From a virus: a stretch of DNA of 27,747 nt. Of this stretch, positions 9,289 to 19,628 are shown piece after piece. Position 1 is the first letter of the stretch. Each line of letters begins with the position of its first letter. Both the position numbers and the translations under genes were made by a program. The stretch is taken from positions 1 to 27,747 of the IMG/VR virus record IMGVR_UViG_3300049442_000113; one strand, written 5' to 3'. The notes beneath the pieces are model-generated. The model did not search any database. It saw only the letters and a program-made list of their open reading frames with translations, and was not told the origin of the DNA.

Positions 9289-10785
9289 TCACGCCTGCCA
9301 CGACGCCGCCGGTAACCATCGCCCCGCCGTCGTCTGGTCCCCCCGCGGCGCCACCGGCAGCGCAAACGTCAACGCCAACGCATCCGCATCGTCCGGCGAC
9401 GCCACCCCCCGCTTCCCCATCGATTCCTTCGACTCCAACACCAATTTGTTGTTCCGCAAGTGAAACCCCGGCCCCGCCAGGTCCAGCGCCAACCGCCCCT
9501 TCGCGTCCATCCCCCGCGTATCAATCGCCCCCCGCGTCAACCACTCCTTCATCCGCCGCCACATCGTCGCCCGCAAATTCCCGTCGCCCTTCTCAATCGT
9601 CGGCCCGCCGAAATTCACCTCGAACACCTGCTGAAACCCCAACCCCCGCAACCGCACGACCACCGCGGCGCCAAACGCGCTGTCGATAAACACCGCATCG
9701 GGCGCGTGCGTCCGGATCGCCTCCACCAACGTCGCCACCACCAACGCCCGGTCATCCGCCGCCGTCTGCGCCCCGCTCAACCGCAGCGCCGGCACCGACC
9801 GCGCATCCAACCCGCGCCGAAACCGCCCCACCGTCCACGCCGACCCGCCCCCGCTGACATCCACGCCCAGAATCAACGGCTCCCCCGCCAACGGCTGCAC
9901 CGCGTTCGTCTGCGCCGCCGCAATCCGCCCGCTGTCAATGAACTGCGTCTCGTCCGCCCGCGGCGGCACCCCCCGCACATGCACCCGAAAAAAATCCTCG
10001 TCCTCGTCCCCGCCGGCATCCTCGAGCCACTCCGCAATGAACGCCGGATTCGGCATCCGACACGTCCGCGCATCCACCACCCGCGTCGTCCACCGATCCC
10101 GCCCGCTCCCGAACACCGCCCGCCACGCATACCCCGTCGTCCGCGTCGGATTGAAAAACATGAACATCATCGGCTCGCCATCCGTCAACCCGCCCTCCGC
10201 GGCTTTGAAAATGGCGTCGTCAATCCCGGAGGCCTCATCGAAAATCATGAAGCTGGTCGACGTCGCGTTATGCTGGCCTTGAAAGGCTTCGCTGTTCTCC
10301 GGCGCACACGACGCCGGCGTCACCTTCCACGATTCCCGATACCCCTTCCGATACAGCACCTGCGAATTAATCTCAAACCAGTGGCCGGTAATACACCGCT
10401 GCGTCCACGTCCGAATCGCCGCCCACGTCTTCTCGCTCAACTGGTCGTTCGTGTTCGCCGTCACCGTCCCAATCGCCCCACGCCGCGTGCTCATAATCCA
10501 ATCCACTAACCACGCCGTCATCGCCCCCTTCCCCACCCCGCGCCCGCTACTCACCGCCACCCGAATCGGCAGCACCGCCGTGTGCCCGTCAAACCGCCGC
10601 GCCCGCACCTGCCGCCCAATCTCCTCCAGCAACTCCGCCTGCCACACGTCCGGCCCCCGATACGCCTCCAGCACCCCAGGCCGCCCCCACGGATACGCCC
10701 GCCGCACAAACCCCAACGGATCCCCAGCCACCGCCGCCATCGCCTCGTGCAGCTCCCGCTCCACATCCCGCCCAACTGCCTCCAT
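9289..10785 (-). CDS. Terminase large subunit
   Basis: This 498-aa packaging motor cuts concatemeric DNA and pumps it through the portal. The ATPase domain has Walker A SSGRGVGKGA (residues 79-88), Walker B SFMIFDEASG (D183, E184) and a coupling-like motif FFNPTRTTG (210-218). The nuclease domain has the RNase H-fold acidic residues in ILGVDVSGGG (D309), AVFIDSAFG (D368) and SPDDADALAL (D465-D468). The start is ATG at 10785, chosen because GGAGGGG lies 4-5 nt upstream; nine more residues in frame lack such a site. Upstream lies a 355-bp spacer, then the putative small subunit. Confidence 0.93.
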   Translation of the reverse strand: MEAVGRDVERELHEAMAAVAGDPLGFVRRAYPWGRPGVLEAYRGPDVWQAELLEEIGRQVRARRFDGHTAVLPIRVAVSSGRGVGKGAMTAWLVDWIMSTRRGAIGTVTANTNDQLSEKTWAAIRTWTQRCITGHWFEINSQVLYRKGYRESWKVTPASCAPENSEAFQGQHNATSTSFMIFDEASGIDDAIFKAAEGGLTDGEPMMFMFFNPTRTTGYAWRAVFGSGRDRWTTRVVDARTCRMPNPAFIAEWLEDAGGDEDEDFFRVHVRGVPPRADETQFIDSGRIAAAQTNAVQPLAGEPLILGVDVSGGGSAWTVGRFRRGLDARSVPALRLSGAQTAADDRALVVATLVEAIRTHAPDAVFIDSAFGAAVVVRLRGLGFQQVFEVNFGGPTIEKGDGNLRATMWRRMKEWLTRGAIDTRGMDAKGRLALDLAGPGFHLRNNKLVLESKESMGKRGVASPDDADALALTFALPVAPRGDQTTAGRWLPAASWQA

Positions 10786-15143: not shown

Positions 15144-15374
15144 TTACTTGCCCCGCAGCGCAATCGCGGCATTCGCCGTCATCACGCACTCCCGCAGCTT
15201 CCGCAGCGCGGCGGATTGGTCGGCGCAGACCGGCGTCAACTCGATGAGCGTCACCGAGAAGTCGTAGGCAGCGTTCCGTAGCTTCTCGTAAGTGATCTGC
15301 TGGTCGGCGTCAGGCGCGTGGTAGGTAAAGATGTCTCTAAGTTGTGTGAGTTGCTCGTGCGTGATTGTTGGCAT
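15144..15374 (-). CDS. Acb2/Tad1-family cyclic-nucleotide sponge (putative anti-CBASS/anti-Thoeris)
   Basis: 76 aa. The order of motifs is that of the Acb2/Tad1 hairpin domain: FTYHAPDADQ near the N-terminus (residues 16-25), YEKLRNAAYDFSVTLIELTP, then DQSAALRKLRECVMTANAAI at the C-terminus. In known members FxYHxP, a middle helix with ELxP and the ANAAIA end are the hallmarks; they form helical hexamers that sequester cyclic di- or trinucleotides or gcADPR and so silence CBASS or Thoeris. Assignment is by motif recall. It lies between RecT and membrane-protein genes, a usual site for anti-defence genes. Ligand specificity cannot be read here. Confidence 0.78.
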   Translation of the reverse strand: MPTITHEQLTQLRDIFTYHAPDADQQITYEKLRNAAYDFSVTLIELTPVCADQSAALRKLRECVMTANAAIALRGK

Positions 15375-15388
15375 AGGCTCCTCAGTTC

Positions 15389-15919
15389 CTAATCAAATTC
15401 TTCGGCGGCATAGAGGCCGTCGAGCACATCGGGATACACTAGGCGCGCGAGCTTCGTCGCCGCACGGGCGACACACATATCGGCAGGATGTTTGCCCCAG
15501 GCGCTCGTCGCAAACTTCGCCGGCTCCTTCGACCAGGCCTGCCGCGCCTCCTCGATCGTGAACGTCAGCACCGTATCGGTGGGGTCGCCGTCGCGGCGCG
15601 TCACGAACGTGGCGTGGTCGGGCGCGCGTTCGGTGCAGCGGAAATACTGCGCCTTGCCGGATTTGAGGATCAGCGCGTGGATGGCGCCGGCGCTCAACGT
15701 CGGCTTGCCTTCGATGATGTGAAACGCGCGCAGACTCGCCATCGCCTGGAAGCCGAGCTCGCGGCCGGCGAGCACGGTGGCGAGCACCGCTTGCGGCGTG
15801 CCGTAGGCGCTGAACAACCGCGACTGAAACATCCACGTCGAGAGCTCTTTGGCCTCGGTGATGTCTTGCGGCTCGAGTTGCCGCTCGAACGCTAGCCCCG
15901 CACTGTCTCGTCGCACCAT
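15389..15919 (-). CDS. RecT-like recombinase, possible separate product
   Basis: If translated alone, ATG at 15919 (MVRRDSAGLAFERQ) would give a 176-aa protein holding the whole RecT-like segment. The ATG lies 25 nt before the stop of the nested 67-aa gene, an overlap suited to re-initiation, but no ribosome binding site is visible. RecT-family annealases pair complementary strands with an exonuclease partner; the FEN domain upstream would be that partner. Ordinary RecT proteins are longer (250-300 aa), though shorter phage versions with this motif set exist. Whether this start is used is unknown. Confidence 0.45.
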   Translation of the reverse strand: MVRRDSAGLAFERQLEPQDITEAKELSTWMFQSRLFSAYGTPQAVLATVLAGRELGFQAMASLRAFHIIEGKPTLSAGAIHALILKSGKAQYFRCTERAPDHATFVTRRDGDPTDTVLTFTIEEARQAWSKEPAKFATSAWGKHPADMCVARAATKLARLVYPDVLDGLYAAEEFD

Positions 15920-16969
15920 CGCGCGAGGTGGGTCTGGATGATCACCATTTGCCGCTGGTGCAGTTCGAGGAGGCTGCACACCAAGAGCAGGAGCACCTCC
16001 TCCCGCGTCAGCAGGCCCGTCTCCGCGACCAGCACCGCGCTCTGCGCCATCGGCTCCGTCCGCGCCAGCGCTTTCAGGTCGTCCCACGTCTTCATGCGTC
16101 TCCTCCGGCATCAGCGTCTCCATCGCAAACGCGATATCGTCGTCGGCGCCGAACGCCGCGGCGTCCGCCGGCACGCGCGTCTGGAAAATCTCCGCGAACG
16201 GAATCGGGGCATCGGTGCGCAGGCGGATCAACGACCGCGCCGTCTCGAAGCGCGAGGGCTCACCCGAGAAAAAGTCGATCAACGATTTCCCGATGGCCGG
16301 CGTGAGCGACGCCTCGCCGCATTCAATCGCCGCCCACAGATCCTCAAGCGTGCCGTAGGTTCCGAGCAACTTCGCCGCGGTCACGGCGCCAATCCGATCC
16401 GCGCCCTGGACGTTGTCGCTTTTGTCGCCGACGAGGGTTAAAAAATCGCAGAACTGAGTCGGGTGGACCCCGAACTTTTCGACCACTGCCGCCGCGTCAT
16501 AGGTGCGTTCGGTGGCGGTGCCGAGCGCCGGCCGAAAGACGTGCACGCGGTCGCAGACGAGCTGTAGTAAATCTTTGTCGGCCGAGATGATCAGCACGTC
16601 GGCGCCGTCGCTGTCGGGCGGCTGCGCGGCGGCGACCGCCGTCGCGATCAGGTCGTCGGCTTCAAAGCCGCGCGCGGCCCAGATCGGAAACCCGTCGCCG
16701 CGCAGGATGTCGATCGCGACGCTGCCCTGATGATACAAGGCCGCATCGCGTTCGGCCGGTCGGTTCGCTTTGTAGTCCGTGCTGATCTCCGCGCGAAACG
16801 ATTTCCCGCTATCACAACAGATCGCGACGTGCGGATGGGCGCTCGCGAGCGCGCGGATTTTCGCGACGACCTGCACGCTCGTAGCATTCGGGTCGGAGTC
16901 CGTGCTCGCGAGCGCCCACGTCGGATGCAGGATCGAACTAAAATCAACCACCACTAAGCGATCACTCAT
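15389..16969 (-). CDS. FEN-type 5'-3' exonuclease in frame with RecT-like domain
   Basis: 526 codons without a stop. Residues 1-290 are a flap endonuclease/5'-3' exonuclease: VVDFSSI (D9), CCDSGKSFRAEIS (D53), ARGFEADDLIATA (E103, D105, D106), IISADKDLLQLV (D131, D133) and TLVGDKSDNVQG (D182, D185). Residues about 360-526 are RecT-like (single-strand annealing): AVLATVLAGRELGFQAMASL, IIEGKPTLSAGAIHALILKS, VLDGLYAAEE. The joint (about 292-358) is Gly/Ala/Pro-rich, with poor codon usage, and overlaps a better-looking 67-aa gene in another frame. So the protein may be a true fusion, or FEN may have lost its stop codon in a three-gene overlap. Start ATG 16969. Confidence 0.75.
   Translation of the reverse strand: MSDRLVVVDFSSILHPTWALASTDSDPNATSVQVVAKIRALASAHPHVAICCDSGKSFRAEISTDYKANRPAERDAALYHQGSVAIDILRGDGFPIWAARGFEADDLIATAVAAAQPPDSDGADVLIISADKDLLQLVCDRVHVFRPALGTATERTYDAAAVVEKFGVHPTQFCDFLTLVGDKSDNVQGADRIGAVTAAKLLGTYGTLEDLWAAIECGEASLTPAIGKSLIDFFSGEPSRFETARSLIRLRTDAPIPFAEIFQTRVPADAAAFGADDDIAFAMETLMPEETHEDVGRPESAGADGADGAERGAGRGDGPADAGGGAPALGVQPPRTAPAANGDHPDPPRAMVRRDSAGLAFERQLEPQDITEAKELSTWMFQSRLFSAYGTPQAVLATVLAGRELGFQAMASLRAFHIIEGKPTLSAGAIHALILKSGKAQYFRCTERAPDHATFVTRRDGDPTDTVLTFTIEEARQAWSKEPAKFATSAWGKHPADMCVARAATKLARLVYPDVLDGLYAAEEFD
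15892..16095 (-). CDS. 67-aa unknown gene nested inside FEN-RecT frame
   Basis: The protein starts MKTWDDLKALARTEPMAQSA and continues with LLTREEVLLLLVCSLLELHQ. GGAGGAG lies 5 nt before the ATG. Third codon positions are nearly all G or C in this frame, while the overlapping FEN-RecT frame reads low-GC third positions here; this marks the 67-aa frame as the selected one. It is helical with a hydrophobic Leu-rich centre. In the usual phage arrangement it would be a separate gene between the exonuclease and annealase. Function unknown. Confidence 0.72.
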   Translation of the reverse strand: MKTWDDLKALARTEPMAQSAVLVAETGLLTREEVLLLLVCSLLELHQRQMVIIQTHLARWCDETVRG

Positions 16970-16983
16970 AGGTCAATCCAATC

Positions 16984-17290
16984 GAGCCACACCTTGCCGT
17001 GCCCTACCATGCCGAGCCTTGCCTCGCCTCACCATGCCGTGCCCAACCCCGCCTGCCACACCTTGCCGGGCCGTGCCGTGCCTCGCCGTGCCTCGCCATA
17101 CCACGCCTGCCGTGCCCCGCCGTTGCCATGCCGCGCCATACCTAACCAGACCAGACCTCGCCGGCCTTCCCTCGCCCCGCCACGCCAGACCGCGCCAGGC
17201 CAAACCTCGCCGCGCCAAACCTGACCTTGCCGGCCACACCGCACCGCGCCTTGCCATGCCAAGCCTTGCCCTACCGGGCCAAGCCGCGCC
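16984..17290. repeat. Degenerate pentamer array 1 (GGYNN on minus strand)
   Basis: About 60 units. On the minus strand almost every fifth position starts GGC or GGT followed by two variable bases (for example GGCAAGGCTTGGCATGGCAA). Occasional four-base units (GGCC, GGCA) shift the phase without ending the array. It starts just after the stop of the 169-aa gene and ends about 15 nt before the FEN start codon. Open frames across it encode Ala/Arg/Gly/Trp strings that follow from the repeat and are not credible proteins. Transcript from the operon would be G-rich here. Confidence 0.9.
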
Positions 17291-17295
17291 CTATC

Positions 17296-17805
17296 TCACG
17301 CCGCTGATACGGCGCCTTCTATCGCGGTCCGCGCGCGCCGCACCGCTTTCACGATCTGATCAAATTCGCTATAACGATCTTCAAACGCGCGCAGCTCCGC
17401 CGCCGCCTGCTCGATGGCCTGCGCCAGCAGCTCGCTGTCCTCGACGACGCGCGCCATCGGCACATACGCGCGCTGCCGCTCGTCGCCGACTTGTTCCACG
17501 AGACTGACGAACGCGCGCAGCACGCGCGGCGCCTCGCGCGGGTCGCTCCGCGGGTGCACGACGCGAATCGACGCGAGCACATGCCGCGCCTGGTGCTCGC
17601 GGTGTAGTTCCGCCGCGCGCACGTCGTCCCATTCAAAGCACGGATGCAGCGCGGACGCCTCATTCCGCGCCGCGTCTACGACTGTGCGCGGCGTCAGCCG
17701 CCCGCCGTGTTCGGTCTGGAGCGTGTCGAGTTCATCGCCGACCGTTTGCGCCGGCGCCGTCTTGTTCGTCAGCCGACATGCCTTTGCCCATACGTATGCC
17801 GCCAT
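17296..17805 (-). CDS. Unknown early phage protein between the pentamer arrays
   Basis: 169 aa starting MAAYVWAKACRLTNKTAPAQ. Internal features are VVDAARNEASALHPCFEWDD, AAELHREHQARHVLASIRVV and a C-terminal helical region with EQAAAELRAFEDRYSEFDQI. I recall proteins with the LHxxFEWDD and QAR motifs in other phages, where the role is unknown. GGAGG lies 5 nt before the ATG; the longer upstream frame is array shadow. It is the only gene flanked on both sides by GGYNN arrays, and normal codon use resumes exactly at its ends, so it may travel with them or act on them. Confidence 0.8.
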   Translation of the reverse strand: MAAYVWAKACRLTNKTAPAQTVGDELDTLQTEHGGRLTPRTVVDAARNEASALHPCFEWDDVRAAELHREHQARHVLASIRVVHPRSDPREAPRVLRAFVSLVEQVGDERQRAYVPMARVVEDSELLAQAIEQAAAELRAFEDRYSEFDQIVKAVRRARTAIEGAVSAA

Positions 17806-17828
17806 GCGTCCTCCGTCTGATGAAAAAA

Positions 17829-18631
17829 ACCATGCCACGCCAAAGCGCCACCCCGACTCGCCCCGCCCGGCCACGCCTCGACATGCCTGCCAAGCCCCGC
17901 CATATCACGCCCGGCCGTGACGGGCCGTGCCTTGCCGGCCACGCCTTGACTGGCCCAGCCATGCCGGACCCAGCCAGACCAGACCATGCCAGGCCTTGCC
18001 GGCCTTGCCGGGCCGGGCCAAGCCTGGCCTCGCCATGCCACGCCTTACCAGACCGTGCCCTGCCGCGCCACGCCGGCCTTACCAGACCTAGCCCAACCCA
18101 GACGCGCCGGGACCAGCCACGCCCAACCCCACCCCGCCTCACCTGCCAAGCCACACCGGACCCAGCCAAGCCATGCCACGCCGTGCCTTACCCCGCTCAG
18201 CCCCGCCGTGCCGGGCCAGCCACGCCACGCCGTGGAGGACCAGCCGCGCCAGGCCTCGCCTAACCTCGCCACACCGACGCCGTGCCATGCCTCGCCGCGC
18301 CCAACCAGGCCGGCCTTGCCCAGCCACGCCACGCCCGACCAGACCCCGCCTTGCATTGCCTTGCCGGGCCTGCCACACCCGACCAAACCGCGCCGCGCCT
18401 TACCGGACCTGACCGTGCCGCGCCACGCCTGCCCTGCCGGCCATGCCCTACCCGAACTTGCCAAGACGCACCTCGCCCCGCCGGGACCGACCGTGCCTGC
18501 CGCGCCATACCCGACCAGGCCACGCCTCACCGCGCCGCGCCGTCCGCGACGGGCCTGACCACGCCGGACCTGCCTCGCCCGGCCACGCCTCACCATGCCT
18601 CGACGTGCCTTGCCTGCCTTGTCGGCCTCAC
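17829..18631. repeat. Degenerate pentamer array 2 (GGYNN on minus strand)
   Basis: About 800 bp, roughly 160 units, with the same rule as array 1: on the plus strand NNRCC (for example ATGCCGGACCCAGCCAGACC), on the minus strand GGYNN, with rare four- or six-base units. It begins directly after the TAG of the 222-aa gene and stops about 25 nt before the start codon of the 169-aa gene. The two N positions look close to random while GG is kept, and I see no longer-range unit. The G-rich strand is the one that would be in the mRNA. Confidence 0.9.
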
Positions 18632-19300
18632 CTACACCGCCGGCGAATCCGCCTGCGTCGCCACAGAAAATCGTCCGAATTGCCCATTTCGCTCCGGCCG
18701 CCACTCGCCAATCCCGACCCCAAAGCCCGCGAGGTTCAGTAGGTTGACAATCTGCGCCGGTGAGATCGCGGAGGCGTTATAGGAAATCCTCACGGTCGCC
18801 CGCCACGTCGGAAACCATCCGCGGAACCGAATATCCGCCGTGCCCATCCCGATCCGCACCATGTCCCCACCAGCGCGCATGACCGGCGTGCCGTCAATCT
18901 CCACGAATTCACCCTGCACATGGATCCGCCGCCGCATCTCGGTCTTCTTCGCGCCATCGACGTCGCCCGCCGCCGTGATCATCGCGTTCTTGAACGCGAT
19001 CGATGGAAACCCGAACCGCGCCTGCGCGACATCCTCGAGCGTGGGGTTCTCCGGCATCGGCGTCAGCCAATAGAGCGACTCCACGAAATCGCGATGGGGA
19101 TCCTTCGCGACCTTCGCGGTCTTCGCTTTCTTCATCTGCTTCGCGAGCATTTCCTCTCTCGCTTTTTTGCTCCAGGCATGACTAACCAATCCGGTCTCAC
19201 CGATGACGACGACTTCCATCTCCTGCACGTCGATCTTCGGGATCGAAATCGGCGTGTCGATGCTCACTGGGGCAGTCTTCGAGCCTGTGCTTTTCGCCAT
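18632..19300 (-). CDS. Conserved phage protein, recombination region
   Basis: 222 aa. Motifs in order: SIDTPISIPKIDVQEMEVVV, TGLVSHAWSKKAREEMLAKQ, MKKAKTAKVAKDPHRDFVES, FGFPSIAFKNAMITAA, IDGTPVMRAGGDMVRI, ADIRFRGWFPTWRATVRISY and GFGVGIGEWRPERNGQFGRF. I recall this pattern (HxWSxKAxxxM, FKxA, VGIGEWRPE) from phage genes next to annealases and nucleases; a DNA-binding or annealing role has seemed likely but I cannot name the family. GAGGA lies 5 nt before ATG 19300. Its stop is followed at once by pentamer array 2. Confidence 0.78.
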   Translation of the reverse strand: MAKSTGSKTAPVSIDTPISIPKIDVQEMEVVVIGETGLVSHAWSKKAREEMLAKQMKKAKTAKVAKDPHRDFVESLYWLTPMPENPTLEDVAQARFGFPSIAFKNAMITAAGDVDGAKKTEMRRRIHVQGEFVEIDGTPVMRAGGDMVRIGMGTADIRFRGWFPTWRATVRISYNASAISPAQIVNLLNLAGFGVGIGEWRPERNGQFGRFSVATQADSPAV

Positions 19301-19397
19301 GTGGTCCTCACGGTTCCGCTGTGACCGCCTGTGGTGTGCGCGGGCGGTCGGTCGCGCATGGCGCCGTGAAGCCGGCGCCGAGCTCGTCGTGACTACT

Positions 19398-19628
19398 TCA
19401 CGGCGATCCGAGATCGCCAGGAATGTCAACGGACCTGTTGCCGTGCAGGCAATCAGCCAACGTGGAAAACACGACGACGCGAGCGGCCCTCGGATCGCTG
19501 AGAAGGAGGCCCGCCCCTAATAACTCGCTCACGACGGCATTGCTAAGGTCCCGTAATCTCTCGCCGCGTTCGCCGGCGCGGGCGTGGTCGTGCGCTTCGG
19601 CCTGGCGGATCTCGTCCTCGTGCCTCAC
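19398..19628 (-). CDS. Small unknown early protein
   Basis: 76 aa: MRHEDEIRQAEAHDHARAGE, then RLRDLSNAVVSELLGAGLLL and VFSTLADCLHGNRSVD. It is helical and mildly acidic, with a hydrophobic central helix. Start GTG at 19628, chosen because it forms a GTGA overlap with the upstream stop, as elsewhere in the operon. It is followed by a 97-bp gap before the 222-aa gene. Function unknown. Confidence 0.68.
   Translation of the reverse strand: MRHEDEIRQAEAHDHARAGERGERLRDLSNAVVSELLGAGLLLSDPRAARVVVFSTLADCLHGNRSVDIPGDLGSP

What the first reader, a model, noticed from the sequence alone, without database searches (positions are those of the whole stretch)
16984..18631. Two long GGYNN pentamer arrays flanking one gene in the recombination module
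About 1.1 kb in total keeps GG at every fifth base on the transcribed-sense strand while the other positions drift (Y, N, N). Classical satellites keep a sequence; here only the spacing of GG is kept, and four-base slips are tolerated. The arrays fill the two spacers around the 169-aa gene, between a conserved phage gene and FEN/RecT. Three hypotheses: (1) GG every 5 nt gives a chain of two-tier G-quadruplex or R-loop sites used as a replication or recombination entry point by FEN/RecT/RuvC-like; (2) the G-rich RNA is a binding platform for a protein reading 5-nt steps; (3) the arrays are homology arms that move the 169-aa gene as a cassette. The DNA period (5) is about half a helical turn.
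Basis: partly seen in the sequence, partly recalled or inferred. Interest (0 to 1): 0.85.

Follow-up and report, generated by a model that had tools for sequence, protein, structure and literature searches.

The report
VIPR RNA-guide arrays in a phage
The strange GG-every-five-bases stretches are guide-RNA arrays of a VIPR system, a recently described phage-encoded relative of CRISPR in which the two free letters of each five-base unit spell out a DNA target, usually in a rival phage.

Summary
Two arrays (16984-17290, 62 units; 17827-18632, 164 units) keep GGY every 5 nt on the transcribed (-) strand, far above dinucleotide shuffles. They are best explained not as quadruplexes, homology arms or assembly error but as guide-RNA arrays. 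The gene upstream (18632-19300) is a Vipr protein: its family profile hits the solved SUSP1 Vipr structure at E 1.1e-37, and its model matches Csm3/Cas7-type CRISPR RAMPs. VIPR (bioRxiv 2026, PMC13142463) uses GGY/NN guide RNAs read with a 1-nt-skip DNA code. I had linked the arrays to this gene before finding that paper: 91 of 120 viral contigs fetched by the GGYNN pattern alone carry a vipr homologue, with 182 of 188 arrays on its sense strand. The 169-aa gene (phrog_15946) is probably a VIPR accessory. It occurs almost only with long arrays punctuated by a tetramer, mostly GGCA, about every 10 units. The module sits in 33 public phage records (27 Mycobacterium, 5 Gordonia, 1 cyanophage). 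Decoding a Quico guide predicts a target in phage Che8 gp14 (19/20 bases). Novelty: new member of a known kind.

The parts
18632..19300 (-). vipr gene: RAMP-fold (Csm3/Cas7-like) protein of 222 aa, phrog_4652 family; the likely reader of the arrays
   Evidence: Family profile hits PDB 36pp_D 'SUSP1 Vipr protein' at E 1.1e-37; all 61 aligned homologues match phrog_4652; AF2 model pLDDT 92.1 matches Csm3/Cas7 structures, best E 5.8e-6, 51 hits at E <= 0.001. Start codon chosen by inspection.
17827..18632 (-). Array B: 164 GGYNN units (146 of 5 nt, 16 of 4 nt, 2 of 6 nt); guide-RNA (vrRNA) array between vipr and the 169-aa gene
17296..17805 (-). 169-aa gene, phrog_15946; probable VIPR accessory (vap)
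   Evidence: phrog_15946 E 3e-22; AF2 pLDDT 93.1; no PDB fold match at E <= 0.001; all 33 phage records with a homologue show array-like hits. Function inferred.
16984..17290 (-). Array A: 62 GGYNN units; second guide-RNA array, between the 169-aa gene and the FEN/RecT gene

Best explanation
The locus is a VIPR (Viral Interference Programmable Repeat) system carried by a tailed, probably temperate phage. In the transcribed direction the order is vipr, array B, 169-aa accessory gene, array A. Array transcripts serve as guide RNAs. Vipr subunits bind one GGY per 5 nt and present the two free bases NN, which pair with double-stranded DNA under a rule that skips one target base per unit. In this array style a tetramer divides the array about every 10 units into guide modules, so many guides fit into 1.1 kb. 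The likely job is to silence genes of competing phages. Shown here: the arrays, the homology and fold of Vipr, the linkage of arrays with vipr and with the 169-aa family, strand co-orientation, the punctuation, and module gain or loss between phages. Taken from the VIPR paper and not tested here: transcription, RNP formation, 1-nt-skip DNA binding, repression. Inferred only: that the 169-aa protein is a vap, and that a segment between punctuations is one guide.
For: Vipr profile to PDB 36pp_D E 1.1e-37. RAMP fold. 91 of 120 viral contigs fetched by the DNA pattern alone carry a vipr homologue; median gap 48 nt; 182 of 188 arrays on its sense strand. tblastn with Vipr, tblastn with the 169-aa protein and the array DNA search converge on the same 33 phage records. 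GGY conserved with near-unconstrained NN is the vrRNA consensus of PMC13142463. Block-style relative L014 shows guide blocks followed by a conserved 49-nt tail with a hairpin-like inverted repeat, as the paper describes. One decoded Quico guide matches Che8 gp14 at 19/20 bases at skip 1 only, with all skip bases on codon position 3.
Against: No target was found for the window's own guides with three exact patterns. The Quico match is one event, reached by 2 of 150 NN-order shuffles. 29 of 120 pattern loci show no vipr homologue in the fetched stretch; some are truncated, some short or low-diversity arrays. The structured 3' tail of type II vrRNAs was not identified in the window. No RNA data.
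Confidence: 0.93

Rival explanations
1. The array RNA is bound every 5 nt by Vipr or a ring protein (as TRAP binds its triplets every 5 nt), but only as a regulatory or sponge platform, without target recognition.
For: 5-nt steps and strand co-orientation. I could not find targets for the window's guides.
Against: The protein is a RAMP homologous to a Vipr reported to be DNA-targeting. The Quico-Che8 match appears at skip 1 only.
Confidence: 0.04
2. The arrays act at the DNA or R-loop level as G-quadruplex-forming entry points for replication or recombination through FEN/RecT.
For: GG at 5-nt spacing fits a two-tier quadruplex pattern (sequence). FEN/RecT lies next to array A.
Against: Arrays follow vipr in 91 of 120 contigs; quadruplexes need neither the pyrimidine nor the regular tetramer.
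Confidence: 0.01
3. The window's VIPR is a decaying relic: vipr and arrays are present but no longer used.
For: No target for the window guides found. Array B has deviating units such as GTC and GAC.
Against: vipr and the 169-aa gene are intact ORFs with confident models. GGY is kept across 226 units. Only three exact patterns were searched.
Confidence: 0.1

Closest known systems
VIPR systems (SUSP1 and P. fulva type II and other types; PMC13142463, PDB 36pp)
   Same: Vipr RAMP protein; GGY/NN 5-nt repeats on the sense strand in long intergenic stretches flanking vipr; small locus with an accessory gene; phage-borne.
   Different: The window has long continuous punctuated arrays instead of separate 9-16-unit guides each with a structured tail. 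[quoted passage not shown] S18), which may be the same style; its supplement could not be read.
Class 1 CRISPR effectors (Csm3/Cas7 RAMPs)
   Same: RAMP fold of the backbone protein.
   Different: 5-nt instead of 6-nt steps (6 nt from the paper and general knowledge), no CRISPR array, no other cas genes seen.
TRAP (trp RNA-binding attenuation protein)
   Same: A fixed triplet about every 5 nt on RNA (general knowledge).
   Different: Unrelated protein, about 11 repeats rather than 62-164, and no target information in the spacers.

Membership tests
VIPR | Vipr protein: homologue of SUSP1 Vipr with a RAMP fold | tested here: met
   Family profile E 1.1e-37 to PDB 36pp_D; window protein alone E 0.0016; Foldseek to Csm3/Cas7
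VIPR | Non-coding tandem GGY/NN repeats, GGY conserved and NN hypervariable | tested here: met
VIPR | Arrays flank vipr, with an accessory (vap) gene in the locus | tested here: inconclusive
   Arrays and a linked small gene are present; identity of phrog_15946 with a named vap could not be checked, as supplements were not readable
VIPR | vrRNA with structured 3' tail | not tested
   No tail was sought or identified in the window; a conserved 49-nt tail exists in block-style relative L014
VIPR | 1-nt-skip DNA target recognition | tested here: inconclusive
   Quico-Che8 19/20 at skip 1, 2 of 150 shuffles as good; no target for window guides
VIPR | Array RNA expressed and bound by Vipr | not testable with these tools
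   Needs RNA sequencing and pull-down
CRISPR-Cas | Identical direct repeats with unique spacers, plus cas genes | tested here: not met
   The arrays are degenerate pentamers; neighbouring genes are phage DNA-metabolism genes; no PADLOC hit for the five proteins tested

The most novel reading that the evidence does not exclude
phrog_15946 marks a VIPR type whose guides are packed in continuous arrays, cut or framed by a phage-specific tetramer (GGCA, CGCA, GGCG, GGCT and others) about every 10 units, and the 169-aa protein reads or processes that punctuation. This would be a way to make many guides from one RNA without a tail on each. The paper mentions staggered overlapping arrays, so part of this may already be described in its supplement.
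Probability: 0.35. Interest if true: 0.6.

Novelty: new member of a known kind. Interest (0 to 1): 0.5.

Why it matters
VIPR was reported only in 2026 as a possible ancestor of CRISPR. This work places it in 27 records of culturable Mycobacterium phages (Cheoctovirus) and 5 of Gordonia phages, where lysogens, deletions and rival phages are routine, so the guide code, the punctuation and the accessory protein can be tested directly in M. smegmatis. It also connects two PHROG families of unknown function (phrog_4652 and phrog_15946) to a named system.

Tried and rejected
Assembly error: rejected, since an identical second contig and finished genomes carry such arrays. Simple microsatellite: rejected, since genome-contig hits to the same pattern are mostly near-perfect, low-diversity pentamer repeats without vipr. 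Coding repeat: disfavoured, with stops in five of the six sense frames examined. Rfam family or hammerhead ribozyme in 16000-19600: nothing near a gathering score. Homology arms: disfavoured. Helical phasing on B-DNA: disfavoured, since the slips are -1 while 5-bp steps would need extra bases (inference). Type III toxin-antitoxin: dropped, no fold match for the 169-aa protein and non-identical repeats. TRAP-like ring: my working idea until the PDB hit. Target search in 2.1 Mb of held loci: no signal after removing low-complexity guides. Pfam and NCBIfam gave no meaningful family for Vipr members, and PADLOC none for the window protein. The PHROG 169-aa family is rare in cellular genomes: 2 of 385, 1 of 369, 0 of 395 and 3 of 300 in four class samples, two of these being the seed genomes. 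Literature searches for pentanucleotide arrays in phages gave nothing relevant.

Full report
The observation. Two stretches keep GG at every fifth base on the - strand, the coding strand of the neighbouring genes. Lag-5 identity is 0.57 and 0.56, against about 0.33 in shuffles. An HMM gives array A 16984-17290 (62 units) and array B 17827-18632 (164 units), with no other in the window. The window is a virus record of 27,747 bases with terminase, portal, major head, helicase/primase and integrase genes. A second contig is identical across both arrays.

Relatives by DNA. A distant blastn of array B found 29 records among 50,697 phage records (27 Mycobacterium, 2 Gordonia). At a loose threshold it also found Gordonia phages Pipp, ODay and Ecliptus, cyanophage Cy-LDV1, LESphi2 and LittleE. 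A similar scan of bacterial genomes gave mostly near-perfect pentamer repeats of low diversity, a different thing.

The 169-aa gene. It belongs to phrog_15946, unknown function, with no Pfam family. All 33 phage records with a homologue show array-like hits; the arrays were confirmed by HMM in the records I fetched. Of the loci found by protein alone, six distinct from the window's own virus and from the array-scan loci (L254, L255, L258/L264, L260, L262, L263) all carry arrays; in one the array lies 2.8 kb away. The AF2 model is confident (pLDDT 93.1) but matches no solved structure at E <= 0.001 and only phage proteins without a named function.

Two array styles. In 42 of the 120 contigs the arrays contain at least three 4-nt units; 26 of these also carry phrog_15946. 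In the other 78, often separate blocks of about 10-17 units, only 1 does. In the phrog_15946 loci the short unit is GGCA in 196 of 279 cases, and the gap between successive short units averages 9.9 units with variance 10, where random placement would give 88. Some phages have their own punctuation: CGCA in L050 and L067, GGCG in L051 and L107, GGCT in L178, GGAC in L015, CGCC in L095. The window uses GGCA, GGCC and GGCT and is less regular. Among mycobacteriophages, segments between punctuations are gained or lost as units: Mattes and ByChance differ by one 11-unit module.

The partner gene. The gene beside the arrays in the window, in Mycobacterium phages and in Gordonia phages is phrog_4652. 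A profile built from it finds homologues in 91 of the 120 contigs, which were fetched without any protein information; the median gap is 48 nt and 182 of 188 arrays are on its sense strand. It is also present in LESphi2 and LittleE, which have block arrays and no detected phrog_15946. tblastn with the window protein finds the same 33 phage records plus LESphi2. Ten phages in a 20-phage panel carry it, and these are the ones with arrays (the panel was not chosen at random).

Identification. The profile of this family matches PDB 36pp_D, 'SUSP1 Vipr protein', at E 1.1e-37. The AF2 model (pLDDT 92.1) matches Csm3/Cas7 CRISPR RAMPs, with 51 hits at E <= 0.001. The paper behind that name is the VIPR preprint PMC13142463. 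It reports Vipr, an ancestral RAMP; vrRNAs of 9-16 YNNGG repeats; dsDNA recognition by NN with one skipped target base per unit; targets in competing phages, with skip bases mostly at codon position 3; seven types with accessory vap genes; and some types with staggered arrays of overlapping vrRNAs. The window meets the protein and repeat criteria. Its arrays differ from the type II form (separate guides each with a structured tail), so it is best read as another type, probably the staggered one. That step is inference, since the supplement was not readable.

Test of the code. Guide modules of ten VIPR phages were decoded and scanned against 2.2 Mb (both strands) of 19 phage genomes. At skip 1 the Quico module AA TT AT TT TT AT GC CC TC AT matches Che8 gp14 at 10431-10460 with 19 of 20 bases; at skips 0, 2, 3 and 4 no 10-unit window has fewer than 3 mismatches. 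All ten skip bases sit on codon position 3 of gp14. Two further contigs with the homologous site differ from Che8 there only at one skip base each; no homologous site was found in Quico itself. NN-order shuffles reached one mismatch in 2 of 150 trials, so this is supportive, not decisive. In IMG/VR the 9-unit Quico pattern has 15 hits at skip 1 (at least three of them Che8 or relatives) and 5 at skip 2. Three exact patterns from the window's own guides had none.

Verdict. A striking and correct observation whose explanation has been published for other phages. What this adds is a set of culturable Mycobacterium and Gordonia carriers, the regular punctuation with module turnover, a strong accessory-family link, and one testable predicted target.

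Noticed in passing
window 15144-15374 (-): A 76-aa protein with the Acb2/Tad1 hairpin domain (Pfam E 9.5e-10): a candidate cyclic-nucleotide sponge against CBASS or Thoeris, three genes downstream of the VIPR module.
   Followed up: partly
window 15389-16969 (-): One 526-aa ORF joins an N-terminal FEN-type 5'-3' exonuclease to a C-terminal RecT-like annealing domain; a fused exonuclease-annealase.
   Followed up: partly
L014 (blocks at 637-1197, -): Block-style arrays: guide blocks of 13-17 units separated by a conserved 49-nt spacer with an inverted repeat, fitting the vrRNA tail of the paper.
   Followed up: partly
L029, L043, L071, L074, L125: Very long arrays (69-182 units) with almost no 4-nt slips; L125 shows no vipr homologue in the fetched stretch. 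A further array style or a diverged reader.
   Followed up: no
L007 6000-6129, L008 1-136: Enterobacter plasmids carry near-perfect GGCGT x23 repeats, in L007 between a ParB-family gene and an antirestriction gene; low diversity and no Vipr hit, so a microsatellite rather than VIPR guides.
   Followed up: partly
L264 8028-8597 and 10784-11359 (-): Two vipr homologues in one prokaryotic genome region, with the array beside the second and phrog_15946 beside the first.
   Followed up: no
L011 3998-5774 (phage LittleE) and L012 2194-3173 (phage LESphi2): vipr homologues with block arrays and no detected phrog_15946; in LittleE the two-gene cassette is inserted, on the opposite strand, among tail genes.
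   Followed up: partly
L341 (TM4 about 40226, -): A Mattes guide module matches TM4 gp66 at 17 of 18 bases under the 1-nt-skip rule; weaker than the Che8 match and possibly chance.
   Followed up: partly
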